A stretch of 64,000 nt of DNA from Collimonas sp. OK412 (lineage in GTDB: Bacteria; Pseudomonadota; Gammaproteobacteria; Burkholderiales; Burkholderiaceae_D): positions 62,001 to 126,000 of the forward strand of contig NZ_FOLC01000015.1 in NCBI RefSeq assembly GCF_900112135.1, given 5' to 3'. Of the stretch, positions 53,868-57,094 are shown piece by piece. The notes beneath the pieces are model-generated. The model saw only the letters and a list, made by a program, of their open reading frames with translations. It was not told where the DNA came from and ran no database searches. Made by a program: the position numbers and the translations under genes. Each line of letters opens with the position of its first letter. The stretch's first letter is position 1.

Positions 53868-54542
53868 CTACAGCTCGTTTTCGTCCAGGTCGTGCTCCAG
53901 GCCGTCAATCGGCAGCAGGTGGCCCAGTTTCGCCGCCTTGGTGTCAAGGTAACGGGTATTGAACGGATTGCGGTTGAGGATCAGCGGAATCCGCTCGACC
54001 ACGGTAATGCCGATTTTCTGCAACGCCGCCACCTTGCGCGGATTGTTGGTCATCAGCCGCAAGGCCGTGATATCCAGGTGCTCCAGCATGGTTTCGCATA
54101 AGCTGTAATCGCGCAGGTCGGCGGCAAATCCCAGCTGCTGGTTGGCTTCCACCGTGTCCGCGCCGCCGTCCTGGATATGGTAGGCGCGCAGCTTGTTGAT
54201 CAAGCCGATGCCGCGCCCTTCCTGGCGCAGATACAGGATGGCGCCGCGCCCTTCGGCGGCAATCTTTTGCAGCGCCCCTTCCAGCTGCGCGCCGCAATCG
54301 CAGCGCTGGCTGAACAAGGCGTCGCCGGTCAGGCATTCGGAATGGACACGCGCCAGGACCGGCGCGCCGTCGTTGACTTCGCCCAAGGTCAGGGCCAGGT
54401 GTTCTTTGCCGGTAGCGTGTTCGATAAAGGCATGCAGCTGGAAGGTCGCCCAAGGCGTGGGCAGCGCGCAAGACGTCACATACTCCAGTTTTTGGTCGGT
54501 TACGGCGGCGGCCAGGCTGCTTTTGTTATTAGTGGTGCTCAT
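53868..54542 (-). CDS. ribA: GTP cyclohydrolase II
   Basis: A 224-aa stand-alone RibA, first committed step of riboflavin synthesis (GTP to 2,5-diamino-6-ribosylamino-pyrimidinone phosphate, formate and pyrophosphate). The zinc cysteines are in [18 protein letters not shown], the catalytic segment is [30 protein letters not shown], and [11 protein letters not shown] lies near the C-terminus. It is not fused to RibB. It converges on the EF-G gene, 28 bp away. The upstream 54543-54775 gap is AT-rich and holds no recognisable riboswitch. Confidence 0.95.
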
Positions 54543-54775
54543 CAGATGGATTTATGGTGAATAAAAGGCATGGCATTGCATAAATGGCATGCCGATAACA
54601 TGCATTTCGGTTTTAACGTTACATAACATATCAATTACTAGCCATCCATTTTACGAGCATTCGAAAAAACACGTATGACGCTCCTGCAACTGTATCTTGC
54701 CAGCGATGAAATTGACCGGATGACAACTGAATATCGGCACGAGACCGTAAAACAGGTGCGGTAACGGTTGGAGAC

Positions 54776-56149
54776 TCAACCCTTAGGCCATGCGATTTTG
54801 TCAAACAGCTGTTGCAGCCGCTTGCCGCGCTGCGGGTTGACCATCCGCACATAGGCGATCCTGCCGGCCAGGAATTGGCGATGATTGTCTCGCCCATCCC
54901 GGTTTTGCGATGCCGGTCCGTGGCGGATGCAGTTTGTCAGCGCAGCCTTCAGGTTGTCGAATTCCTGGCGCGGGATATTGGGGTGGCGGTTGACCACGAT
55001 GCCGGTTACCTGCTGCCTGGCGCCGCTGCGCATCATCCGGGTTTTCCTGGTGTTGACCGAAAACCCCTCTTCCAACGCGATCGCCGCCACTTGCACATGG
55101 AAACGGTCCATCGCCCGTTCCAGTTCGCCGTCGCCGGAAAACGCCAGGTCGTCGGCGTAGCGGCTGTAACCGGCGTTGAGCGAGGCCGCCAGGGCCTGCA
55201 GCCGCAGATCCAGCCGGTAAGCGCACAAATTGGCAAGCGCCGGCGAGCACGGCGAGCCTTGCGGCAGATGGCGCTGGCGAAAAACCTGCCGTTCCTGCCA
55301 GGACAATGCGCCGGCGCTTGCCGGATCTTGATGATTCAGTACGCTGCCCGGCGTCCGGTGCGTGCAAAGGCGGGACAGGATGCCGGCAACCCTGGACGGG
55401 TAACCCAGCCCGGTAAATAGCGCATGGATCCGCGCCGCCGGGATGCTGGTGAAAAAATTCTTCAAGTCCATGCGTATCACTACCCGCTTGCCGGCATGGC
55501 GCGCCGCATGCGTCACGCATGAGTGGCCGCGCCGGAAACCTTGCGCCGCCGGGTGCAGCGGCAGCAGGTCGAGCAGGCCGCGCAGTATCTGGCCTTGCAT
55601 GGTCCGCAGGCGCGGCTTGGGAATTTCGAGCAGGCGCAGCCCGCCGCTCCGTTTTGCTATCCAGCGATGGTGGTAATGCTGCAGGGCTGCCGCCGGCGGC
55701 GGACTAGTGCGCCATTTGTCGGCGAACCAGTCCAGCTCGGACGGCCCTGCCTTGAGCCACTGCGCGAGGTCGGCAGTGGTGGCTAGCGCAGGCAGCGGCA
55801 GCGCCGATACCCATGCCGGCTTGCCGGCTGGCAGAGGCAGGTCCAGGCAAAAATGCCGGATCTGCGGCGGCTCGCTATCCAGCCATGCATCGGCAAAGCC
55901 TTGGTGCGCCAGGATCAGCGCGGCCAGTTCGGTGCGGCCATGGCGATGCAGCCGGTCGCCGAACTGTTTGTATACAGCCCGGCACAATGAAGGTATCCAG
56001 CGCCATTTCTTTCCAAGCGCCCGTCTTGCGCCTTGCTGCATGGCCTCAACGCTCGCTTCGCGCGCGAGGAAGGTGTCGGCAAGAGCCAAGGCGACGAAAG
56101 TTTGTGGAGTCATTTGCTCAAGGTAAGCGAGGCGGCGGAGAGCCTTCAA
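54776..56149 (-). CDS. Retron-type reverse transcriptase with N-terminal extension
   Basis: A 457-aa RT. All core motifs are present: AAQGFRRGHS (residues 201-210), RMDLKNFFTSIP (226-237), LPQGSPCSPALANL (295-308), the catalytic RYADDLAFSGD (330-340) and the retron-specific VTGIVVNRHPN (381-391). No maturase, integrase or HNH domain follows, so it is not a group II intron or retroelement. Residues 1-140 form a helical extension, as in the long myxobacterial-type retron RTs. The start is TTG 56149 or ATG 56113; an in-frame stop excludes anything longer. The 300-bp leader is unusually structured and probably encodes the msr-msd RNA. No separate effector gene lies on the same strand. Confidence 0.9.
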   Translation of the reverse strand: MKALRRLAYLEQMTPQTFVALALADTFLAREASVEAMQQGARRALGKKWRWIPSLCRAVYKQFGDRLHRHGRTELAALILAHQGFADAWLDSEPPQIRHFCLDLPLPAGKPAWVSALPLPALATTADLAQWLKAGPSELDWFADKWRTSPPPAAALQHYHHRWIAKRSGGLRLLEIPKPRLRTMQGQILRGLLDLLPLHPAAQGFRRGHSCVTHAARHAGKRVVIRMDLKNFFTSIPAARIHALFTGLGYPSRVAGILSRLCTHRTPGSVLNHQDPASAGALSWQERQVFRQRHLPQGSPCSPALANLCAYRLDLRLQALAASLNAGYSRYADDLAFSGDGELERAMDRFHVQVAAIALEEGFSVNTRKTRMMRSGARQQVTGIVVNRHPNIPRQEFDNLKAALTNCIRHGPASQNRDGRDNHRQFLAGRIAYVRMVNPQRGKRLQQLFDKIAWPKG

Positions 56150-56165
56150 CCAGTCCCGTCATGCG

Positions 56166-56200
56166 TGAGCCGAGCCTGCACCGTGGTGCAGGGCCGCTCA
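56166..56200 (-). promoter_or_regulatory. Hairpin just ahead of the reverse transcriptase start
   Basis: A perfect 8-bp stem CCTGCACC/GGTGCAGG with a 2-nt loop is extended by TGAGC/GCTCA across a small internal loop. It ends about 17 nt upstream of the TTG start and could limit RT translation or mark RNA processing. Confidence 0.5.
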
Positions 56201-56229
56201 TGCGTTGCATTGCCCAGCCAAAATATCCC

Positions 56230-56244
56230 GCGGGGTAACCCCGC
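56230..56244 (-). promoter_or_regulatory. GC-rich hairpin in the RT leader
   Basis: GCGGGG-TTA-CCCCGC on the minus strand, followed by GGGATATTTT. It could be a 3' boundary or attenuator between the structured RNA and the RT coding region. The T-run is too distant for a clear terminator. Confidence 0.45.
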
Positions 56245-56272
56245 AGAGGCGTCCCATTACACAAGGTAACAG

Positions 56273-56412
56273 TGCGCCGGCTTGAAGGGTCCGCCGCCCG
56301 GCCACACTATGTGAATATGGCAGGAGTGTCAACTGGCGTGCGGGCGGCGCCGCGGCCCTGCATGCTTGCCTAGGCAAGCATGCGATTTCAACTATCTGTC
56401 GGTGGCGGCGCA
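56273..56412 (-). ncRNA. Candidate retron msr-msd RNA (nested three-way junction)
   Basis: On the RT strand, outer arms TGCGCCG (56412-56406) and CGGCGCA (56279-56273) could be a1/a2. Inside, TTGAA (56391-56387) pairs with TTCAA (56286-56282). Together they enclose a perfect 24-nt palindrome (56383-56360, arms GCATGCTTGCC, TA loop) and a long msd-like hairpin (56358-56287). The long hairpin has GGG/CCC at its base, nine GC pairs, then GCC/GGC and ACACT/AGTGT closing a 16-nt loop. The placement directly upstream of the RT and the nested fold match retron architecture. The branching guanosine is unassigned; it should be a G in 56405-56392. The boundaries are predictions by eye. Confidence 0.5.
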
Positions 56413-56450
56413 TATTATTGTTAGAATCTTACCTGTTGAATTTTTTTAAT
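56411..56450. promoter_or_regulatory. Shared AT-rich divergent promoter region (pqiA and retron)
   Basis: For the rightward pqiA, TAGAAT (56422-56427) is a good -10. For the leftward RNA, TTCAAC-17 bp-TAATAT is possible, but its predicted start would trim the proposed a1 arm. The two promoters overlap, so the units may interfere with each other. Confidence 0.4.
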
Positions 56451-56455
56451 ACTTC

Positions 56456-57094
56456 ATGCGCGAAGTCCCCAACCTGATTGCCTGCGAAGGATGCGATGCC
56501 CTGTATCGCAAGGTACAGCTGCGCCGTGGAGAGATTGCCCATTGCCCGCGCTGCGGCACCGAATTGGAGCGTGACGCCGGCCGCCAGCGTGAGCGCATCC
56601 TGCCGCTGACGGTGGCCAGCCTGATCATGTTCGTGATCGCCAACAGCTTTCCCATCGTCGAAATCGAGCTGCAAGGCTTGAGCAGCCGCACCACCCTGTT
56701 CGGCGCGGTGCTGTCGCTGACCACCGAAGGCATGTCGCTGGTGGCCCTGCTGGTGCTGGCCACCACCATCCTGTTTCCGCTGCTGCAGCTGCTGTTCCTG
56801 TTTTACCTGCTGGTGTCGCTGCGTAATCAGCGTAACCCGCAGCGCCGCCCGCCCGGTTTCAGCTGGCTGGTAAGGGCCATGCAAAGCTTGCGGCCGTGGG
56901 GCATGGTGGAAGTGTTCTTGCTCGGTGTGCTGGTGGCGGTAGTGAAATTATCGAATATGGCGACCGTGATCCCGGGCGTGGCCCTGTGGGCGTTCGGCGT
57001 GCTGACGGTGCTGCTGACCGCGGTGGTGTCTTTCAACCCCCGGCACTTCTGGCAGATGGCCTATGCCGAACGCAGCCAGGAAGAGATTGCATGA
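56456..57094 (+). CDS. pqiA: PqiA-like membrane protein, first half
   Basis: A 212-aa protein starting MREVPNLIACEGCDALY. A zinc-ribbon-like pair CEGC...CPRC (residues 10-34) precedes four membrane helices (SLIMFVIANSFPIVEIELQG, LVALLVLATTILFPLLQLLF, MVEVFLLGVLVAVVKLSNMA and GVLTVLLTAVVSF). E. coli PqiA is one ~417-aa protein with two such modules; here each module is a separate gene. It is an inner-membrane partner of the PqiBC lipid-trafficking tunnel. No Shine-Dalgarno is visible. Its stop overlaps the next start. Confidence 0.9.
   Translation: MREVPNLIACEGCDALYRKVQLRRGEIAHCPRCGTELERDAGRQRERILPLTVASLIMFVIANSFPIVEIELQGLSSRTTLFGAVLSLTTEGMSLVALLVLATTILFPLLQLLFLFYLLVSLRNQRNPQRRPPGFSWLVRAMQSLRPWGMVEVFLLGVLVAVVKLSNMATVIPGVALWAFGVLTVLLTAVVSFNPRHFWQMAYAERSQEEIA

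What the first reader, a model, noticed from the sequence alone, without database searches (positions are those of the whole stretch)
54776..56412. Retron candidate: reverse transcriptase with a structured msr-msd-like leader
The RT carries all core motifs plus VTG, and no intron maturase or endonuclease domain. Its leader on the same strand folds by eye into nested arms. An outer 7-bp GC-rich pair encloses a 5-bp helix, which itself encloses a perfect 24-nt palindrome and a 70-nt hairpin. This order (a1, msr stem, msd hairpin, a2, RT) is that of retrons. No known RNA sequence is recognised, so the RNA would be new.
Basis: partly seen in the sequence, partly recalled or inferred. Interest (0 to 1): 0.82.

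Follow-up and report, generated by a model that had tools for sequence, protein, structure and literature searches.

The report
Solitary retron with conserved leader RNA

Summary
The reverse transcriptase (RT) at 54776-56113 (minus strand) is a retron RT. That 41-pair fold at 56273-56412 keeps only 29-31 pairs in three close relatives, with 0-1 compensatory changes. The true RNA runs from about 56304 to 56125. Its a1 (56298-56282) pairs with a2 (56149-56131) and ends at a guanosine (56281) that is G in 86 of 88 sequences. Two msr hairpins and one msd hairpin lie between. Covariation is strong: 34 of 37 pairs change on both sides among 88 chosen sequences, and 23 of 28 in a separately aligned set of 39. 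Of 392 family genomes, 41 hold the RT and 40 of these the RNA; none has the RNA alone. The RT clade (support 99) is sister to PADLOC type XIII-like RTs (support 89). No recurring neighbour gene was found, so it looks solitary, with a clade-specific N-terminal domain of about 105 residues. PADLOC already holds the RT lineage as RT_other; no Rfam 15 family matches the leader. DNA product and biological role are untested.

The parts
56304..56332 (-). Promoter-like element: TTGACA (56332-56327), 17-nt spacer, TAGTGT (56309-56304)
   Evidence: TTGAnn-N17/18-TAnnnT 57-68 nt upstream of msr hairpin 2 in 29 of 33 loci, window included. The generic promoter scan found no site in the region. Conserved position; promoter function inferred.
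56125..56304 (-). Retron non-coding RNA (msr-msd) as delimited by covariance model R1
   Evidence: R1 hit, 174 bits, E 3.7e-49 (the window is one of the model's own rows); alignment of 33 loci; covariation.
56282..56298 (-). a1 arm: GGCGGCGGA, one unpaired C, CCTTCAA
   Evidence: Pairs with a2 over 9 + 7 bp (sequence; fold). In A4 all 14 modelled a1/a2 pairs (helices 1-4) show changes on both sides.
56281..56281 (-). Predicted branching (priming) guanosine directly after a1
   Evidence: G in 86 of 88 sequences at this position, context CAAGC in 55; exceptions L076 and L123. Role inferred from retron biochemistry (PMC6868368 passages).
56248..56278 (-). msr hairpin 1 (variable sequence)
   Evidence: Predicted in the window. 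The segment between branch G and hairpin 2 folds better than its shuffles: mean z -2.2, z below -1 in 76 of 88 sequences.
56227..56247 (-). msr hairpin 2, TCTGCGGGG-TTA-CCCCGCGGG; candidate RT-recognition hairpin
   Evidence: 9 pairs, 96.3% of cells paired, 6 with changes on both sides; loop TTA/CTA/ATA in 81 of 88. [quoted passage not shown]
56166..56200 (-). msd hairpin (template of the msDNA stem-loop)
   Evidence: 11 pairs modelled in two helices, all 11 with changes on both sides (helices 8 and 9).
56150..56226 (-). Predicted reverse-transcribed region (msd). Starts opposite G56150; end not determined (somewhere 56204-56226, about 55-77 nt)
   Evidence: The base just 5' of a2 is G in 87 of 88; start and end inferred, not measured.
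56131..56149 (-). a2 arm: TTGAAGG, CTC, TCCGCCGCC
   Evidence: Pairs with a1.
54776..56113 (-). Retron reverse transcriptase, 445 aa from ATG 56113
   Evidence: PADLOC RT_other 476 bits, RT_outgroup 452 bits; dN/dS 0.16-0.21 in the four pairs that involve a genus member.
55799..56113 (-). Clade-specific N-terminal domain of the RT (about residues 1-105)
   Evidence: No Pfam match at E 0.1 in the window's copy; no match to the N-terminus of three type XIII-like RTs; aligned over 19 members.

Best explanation
This is a two-part (RNA + RT) retron. A promoter at 56332-56304 starts a transcript at about 56298, so the RNA's 5' end is the a1 arm itself; the RT is read from the same strand downstream. 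The RNA folds with a1 paired to a2, leaving G56281 exposed at the end of that helix beside the first template base, G56150. The RT binds the RNA (most likely through the GGGG-UUA-CCCC hairpin), primes on the 2'-OH of G56281, copies the msd hairpin upstream of a2 and stops before hairpin 2. The product would be an msDNA of about 55-77 nt joined to the msr RNA. Shown here: the RNA, its helices by covariation, the conserved G positions, co-occurrence with the RT, purifying selection, and no recurring partner gene in the flanks searched. Inferred: transcription start, the 2'-5' branch, msDNA length and the RT-binding hairpin. Biological role: most likely a sensing or anti-phage role with the effector function supplied by the RT's own N-terminal domain or a host protein; this last step is a guess.
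For: RT is retron-type: the 25 listed of 54 PADLOC matches all bear retron RT type names; Ec86 RT is the best PDB match; the group II intron model scores 54 bits against 185 for the retron St85 model, both below their cut-offs. RNA: the minimum-energy fold of 56127-56306 has the full a1-msr-msd-a2 layout, z -2.77. Covariation: 22 of 37 pairs compensatory in A2, 33 sequences; A4, 88 sequences: 95.5% of cells paired, 34 of 37 pairs changed on both sides, score 0.553 against at most 0.096 when slid; MAFFT-aligned set of 39 distant sequences: 94.3% paired, 23 of 28 pairs, score 0.486 against at most 0.117. Co-occurrence: 40 of 41 RT-bearing genomes among 392; of the 12 RT-bearing genomes that gave no row to the model, 11 are hit; 78 of 80 named loci have the RNA on the RT strand upstream. 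Branch G 86 of 88, template G 87 of 88. dN/dS 0.08-0.24 in eight pairs.
Against: No transcript or msDNA was seen. The retron motif NAXXH reads HAARH in the window (the N is replaced). No effector gene is linked, so a defence role is unsupported. One of the three nearest relatives (L003) has a premature stop at codon 335, and 11 of 15 genus genomes lack the element, so it is dispensable. Two of 88 sequences (L076, L123) lack G at the aligned branch position and L123 also at the template position. The generic promoter scan did not support the promoter. G410, an RT-bearing genome with a 36% identical RT, has no RNA hit.
Confidence: 0.88

Rival explanations
1. The first reader's structure (outer pair, 24-nt palindrome, 70-nt hairpin at 56273-56412) is the msr-msd, and the downstream element is something else.
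For: It folds well in the window itself: -65.5 kcal/mol, z -2.9.
Against: 29-31 of 41 pairs kept in three close relatives with 0-1 compensatory changes; outside the genus no alignable sequence upstream of the promoter-like element; the palindrome is imperfect even in L002 and L003.
Confidence: 0.03
2. The conserved leader is a cis-regulatory RNA (RT autoregulation or riboswitch-like leader), not a template for msDNA.
For: It sits directly upstream of the RT start codon, and a2 ends only about 17 nt before the ATG, so a1/a2 pairing could affect translation.
Against: The layout is that of retrons: exposed G next to the first template base, a1/a2 helix, separate msr and msd hairpins. In one relative the RNA lies 3.3 kb upstream of an open RT frame, unless that is an assembly fault. 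No genome searched had the RNA without the RT. A dual role is not excluded.
Confidence: 0.06
3. A conventional tripartite retron whose effector is encoded elsewhere in the genome or was lost in this lineage.
For: Retrons typically comprise an RT, a template RNA and a toxic effector (abstract of PMC12548924).
Against: No protein family recurs beside the retron: at most 8 of 80 loci share any neighbour family within the fetched flanks of up to 4 kb; the two largest clusters of adjacent ORFs (6 and 5 loci) are translations of the RNA region itself. Here the flanks are a GTP cyclohydrolase II gene and a PqiA gene, also next to each other in relatives without the retron. A trans-encoded or very small effector cannot be excluded.
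Confidence: 0.25
4. A decaying relic with no present function.
For: L003 has a premature stop at codon 335; L113 and L130 have early internal stops; 11 of 15 genus genomes lack the element.
Against: The window's frame is intact; dN/dS is 0.16-0.21 for the four pairs that involve a genus member; RNA pairing is preserved in the window.
Confidence: 0.05

Closest known systems
PADLOC retron RT_other / RT_outgroup lineage
   Same: All 50 scanned clade members match both models at E 1e-60 or better, and both are the window's best PADLOC matches.
   Different: No difference seen at the RT level. What PADLOC or Mestre et al. 2020 say of the RNA could not be checked: the paper is not held and PADLOC's RNA models are not among the tools.
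PADLOC type XIII-like retron RTs, including proteins of the lengths of Mx162 RT (485 aa) and Mx65 RT (427 aa) in a Myxococcus genome
   Same: Sister group in the RT tree (joint branch support 89); myxococcal retron RTs also have extended N-termini (PMC6868368 passages).
   Different: Separate clade (support 99); different N-terminus (hhalign probability 0.2%, three type XIII-like sequences); RNA model R1 has no hit below E 0.39 at those loci. Both kinds coexist in one Myxococcus genome. The names Mx162 and Mx65 rest on recalled protein lengths.
Retron-Eco1 (Ec86)
   Same: Best PDB match of the RT; a1/a2 arms, an msr hairpin whose loop carries an RT-recognition motif (PMC11754653 passages), an msd hairpin.
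   Different: Eco1 has an adjacent effector and no N-terminal extension (recalled); no Rfam family matches the RNA here.
Lone retron RTs in environmental isolates (Retron-Sda1, Retron-Bth1; PMC12548924 passages)
   Same: Retron RT without the usual effector.
   Different: Those two are single isolates, disrupted by other elements (abstract); here the absence of a recurring neighbour holds for the 80 loci of one clade.

Membership tests
Retron | Retron-type RT with YADD and VTG motifs, no maturase or endonuclease domain | tested here: met
   D321, D322 invariant and Y319, G371 at least 90% conserved in A6, 50 members
Retron | Region X motif NAXXH | tested here: inconclusive
   HAARH in the window; H206 invariant in A6, 50 members; A203 at least 90% in A3, 13 members, not listed in A6. 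The review reports two validated retrons that also lack the N.
Retron | ncRNA with complementary a1/a2 ends next to the RT gene | tested here: met
Retron | Priming guanosine at the inner end of a1 | tested here: met
   G in 86 of 88, by position only; priming itself not testable
Retron | msDNA with 2'-5' branch | not testable with these tools
   Needs nucleic acid from cells
Tripartite retron (RT + RNA + effector) | Conserved effector gene or fused effector domain | tested here: not met
   No recurring neighbour, no recognised fused domain. The N-terminal domain is unassigned, so a fused effector of unknown fold is not excluded.
PADLOC retron type XIII | RT closest to the type XIII model | tested here: not met
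   RT_XIII is third, 329 bits against 476 for RT_other; separate clade
PADLOC RT_other / RT_outgroup | Best match of the RT | tested here: met
   Best and second match of the window's RT; 50 of 50 members match both models
Rfam RNA families (4227 models) | Covariance-model match in the leader | tested here: not met
   54500-56800 searched at E up to 1: one match, below its gathering score, on the other strand inside the RT gene

The most novel reading that the evidence does not exclude
A many-phylum clade of two-component retrons in which no separate effector exists and the RT's clade-specific N-terminal domain, held in check by its own msDNA, is the effector: a fused RNA-DNA-protein immune switch of a kind not yet described for this lineage, with a previously undefined RNA family.
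Probability: 0.22. Interest if true: 0.72.

Novelty: new variant of a known kind. Interest (0 to 1): 0.5.

Why it matters
What a retron does without an effector gene is an old question, going back to the myxobacterial msDNAs. This lineage gives a broad set of apparently solitary retrons with a precisely delimited RNA, which makes the question testable by simple expression, point mutation and domain deletion. The covariance model also gives a way to annotate the RNA, and short single-stranded DNA producers are useful in genome editing.

Tried and rejected
Rejected: orphan copies of the RNA; each genome with a hit had one, always with the RT (one search used stricter filters that lose weak matches). 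Rejected: a conserved neighbour as effector. Rejected: membership of type XIII. Led nowhere: viral contigs gave 73 loci with at most 35% identity over the best segment and phage records 4 with at most 34%. Plasmid records gave 13 matches at E 1e-30, the best three being large Burkholderia replicons at 48-57% identity. The generic promoter scan found no site. Pfam on the N-terminal domain of 19 members gave only scattered weak matches, best E 0.011. Structure prediction was asked for nine times and the machine was busy each time, so no model and no fold search exist. Papers: eight searches; passages seen of PMC6868368, PMC9252829 and PMC11754653; outline, abstract and passages of PMC12548924; Mestre et al. 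2020 is not held. None of what I saw describes this RNA, but the library lacks much of the retron classification literature, so that is weak evidence.

Choices that could flatter the result: A4 used 88 sequences, 29 of the 33 of A2 and 59 of the 80 named loci; near-duplicates, truncated loci and the weakest hits were left out, and its alignment is fitted to the model. A5 used 39 of the 80 named loci, aligned by MAFFT, but with coordinates taken from model hits. A6 used 12 window-kin loci and 38 of the 80. Six of the 80 have a stop in the matched RT stretch; in four it is at the natural end, in L113 and L130 it is at codons 80 and 65. L020 was left out of A2 because no RNA was found next to its RT (it lies 3.3 kb away). 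In the tree 127 rows were used.

Corrected on checking: I had read L021 as a broken copy; its two early stops lie before its first ATG, so its RT is open. I had named L115 as a branch-G exception; it is L123.

Full report
Check of the observation. The frame at 54776-56149 (minus) is open. The listed TTG start lies inside the conserved a2 arm; the ATG at 56113 is the likelier start, as homologues have an ATG at about the same place. The protein matches retron RT models best: PADLOC RT_other 477.5 bits, RT_outgroup 451.9, RT_XIII 328.8; best PDB match Ec86 RT; in Pfam only RVT_1 passes its cut-off. It is not conserved: in L002, L003 and L004 it keeps 31, 31 and 29 of 41 pairs, with 0, 0 and 1 compensatory changes.

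Finding the real RNA. The RT was found in 4 of 15 genus genomes, the window's included, in 41 of 392 family genomes and in 9 of 399 order genomes, two of these from the window's own genus, all at E 1e-60 or better. Aligning the leaders of 34 loci showed conservation beginning at a TTGA..N17..TA...T element and running to just before the ATG. The element was found in 29 of 33 loci, window included; of the four misses, L018 failed because the hairpin used as anchor did not match the pattern, L031 and L032 have TTGC, and L039 has no match. Window 56127-56306 folds as a1/a2 helix, two msr hairpins and an msd hairpin, z -2.77 with 1 of 200 shuffles as good.

Covariation. A2 (33 sequences): 37 pairs, 22 with compensatory changes. 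A4 (88 chosen sequences, aligned by the model): 95.5% of cells paired against 74.4% shuffled and at most 47.2% slid; 34 of 37 pairs with double changes; score 0.553 against at most 0.096 slid. A5 (39 distant sequences, aligned by MAFFT, structure predicted anew): 28 pairs, 23 compensatory; 94.3% paired, score 0.486 against at most 0.117 slid (its structure comes from the same alignment, which favours it over slid versions). Most of the first msr hairpin was not modelled, but its segment folds better than shuffles with mean z -2.2, and z below -1 in 76 of 88.

Anatomy. The base after the a1 helix is G in 86 of 88, the base before a2 is G in 87 of 88, and the hairpin-2 loop is TTA, CTA or ATA in 81 of 88. 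The exceptions are L076 and L123. The template just 5' of a2 is conserved in sequence: at -10 A in 64, -9 C in 61, -6 G in 81, -5 A in 65, -4 C in 73 of 88, so the 5' arm of the predicted msDNA is conserved too.

RNA and RT go together. Model R1 hits 4 of 15 genus genomes, the same four as the RT, and 40 of 392 family genomes, all within the 41 RT genomes; the 41st, G410, has a 36% identical RT. Twenty-nine of the 41 contributed rows to the model; of the 12 that did not, 11 were hit, the weakest (G158) at E 2.1e-9. Among 80 named loci, 78 have a hit on the RT strand upstream at E 1.8e-4 or better; at least three of the 80 (L054, L055, L064) are the same contigs as model rows by length. Of the two misses, L081 begins 74 bases before the match and L130 has an internal stop in its RT. 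In a further 38 loci the only hits below E 0.01 were L222-L227, which are the clade loci of six myxobacterial genomes already counted among the 80, and L047 and L048, which the tree puts inside the clade.

Phylogeny. A quick maximum-likelihood tree of 127 RT domains puts the window in a branch of 92 rows with support 99: the 90 expected members plus L047 and L048. By record titles these come from Pseudomonadota, Planctomycetota, Acidobacteriota, Myxococcota, Actinomycetota, Verrucomicrobiota, Gemmatimonadota and Bdellovibrionota; many are metagenome bins, whose names can be wrong. The sister group of 12 rows holds mostly myxobacterial RTs; its four members scanned (L228, L229, L233, L240) match PADLOC RT_XIII best. 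Support of the joint branch is 89, below the starred level, and the tree has no bootstrap. One Myxococcus genome holds four such RTs: one of this clade, one of 485 aa with a long inverted repeat upstream, one of 427 aa and one of 472 aa. I read the 485- and 427-aa proteins as Mx162- and Mx65-like from recalled lengths; no call proves it.

Solitary state. All-against-all BLAST of ORFs in the flanks (up to 4 kb) of 80 loci found no family in more than 8 loci. An all-against-all phmmer of ORFs next to the retron (75 loci with 700 bases downstream, 72 with 1200 upstream) gave as its two largest clusters (6 and 5 loci) translations of the RNA region itself. Very small or very fast-evolving partners could be missed. 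In the window the neighbours are a GTP cyclohydrolase II gene and a PqiA gene.

Genomic site. In the four genus genomes with the retron it lies upstream of the GTP cyclohydrolase II gene at the same site. Of the 11 others, 10 show the start of the pqiA gene and a spacer without the retron, and L220 has unrelated sequence (read by eye). L210 is a close relative with a clean short spacer; compared with L003 the retron allele adds about 1.66 kb. The 24-nt palindrome of the window lies at the left junction.

Selection. dN and dS for eight pairs give ratios of about 0.08 to 0.24; the four pairs that involve a genus member give 0.16 to 0.21.

The N-terminal domain. Residues 1-105 have no Pfam match at E 0.1 in the window's copy and no profile similarity to the N-terminus of three type XIII-like RTs (a small alignment, so weak). 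No structure could be predicted.

Verdict. A retron, of a lineage whose RT is already modelled by PADLOC, with a leader RNA that no Rfam 15 family matches. Its mechanism of DNA synthesis can be stated with good confidence from the anatomy; its biological role cannot.

Noticed in passing
L062:501-680 and L062:4001-5341 (Massilia rubra CCM 8692): The retron RNA and an open RT frame are separated by about 3.3 kb holding a P-type (E1-E2) ATPase ORF of 792 aa; if not an assembly fault, the RT would have to use its RNA over a distance.
   Followed up: partly
56360-56383: Perfect 24-nt palindrome GCATGCTTGCCTAGGCAAGCATGC at the left junction of the retron; only part of it is kept in L002 and L003, and it is not seen in L004.
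   Followed up: partly
L210 (G004) against L003: A close relative has an empty spacer at this site; the junctions share about 6 nt (CTTGCC/CCTGCC), so gain or loss may have gone through short homology.
   Followed up: partly
L003: A genus relative whose RT frame has a premature stop at codon 335 although its RNA scores as high as the window's.
   Followed up: no
window 56150-56161 and homologues: The single-stranded template between the msd hairpin and a2 (AC..GAC..G) is conserved in sequence, beyond what pairing needs.
   Followed up: partly
L007/L017, L011, L015/L016 (G008, same genus): Another genus member has three other RT loci; L011 matches PADLOC RT_II-A best.
   Followed up: no
L218 (G008), spacer upstream of the GTP cyclohydrolase II gene: The retron-free spacer of one relative carries a stretch bounded by inverted repeats (GAGGCTGTTGCAAACACA ... 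TGTGTTTGCAACAGCCTC), read by eye; possibly a small mobile element at the same site.
   Followed up: no
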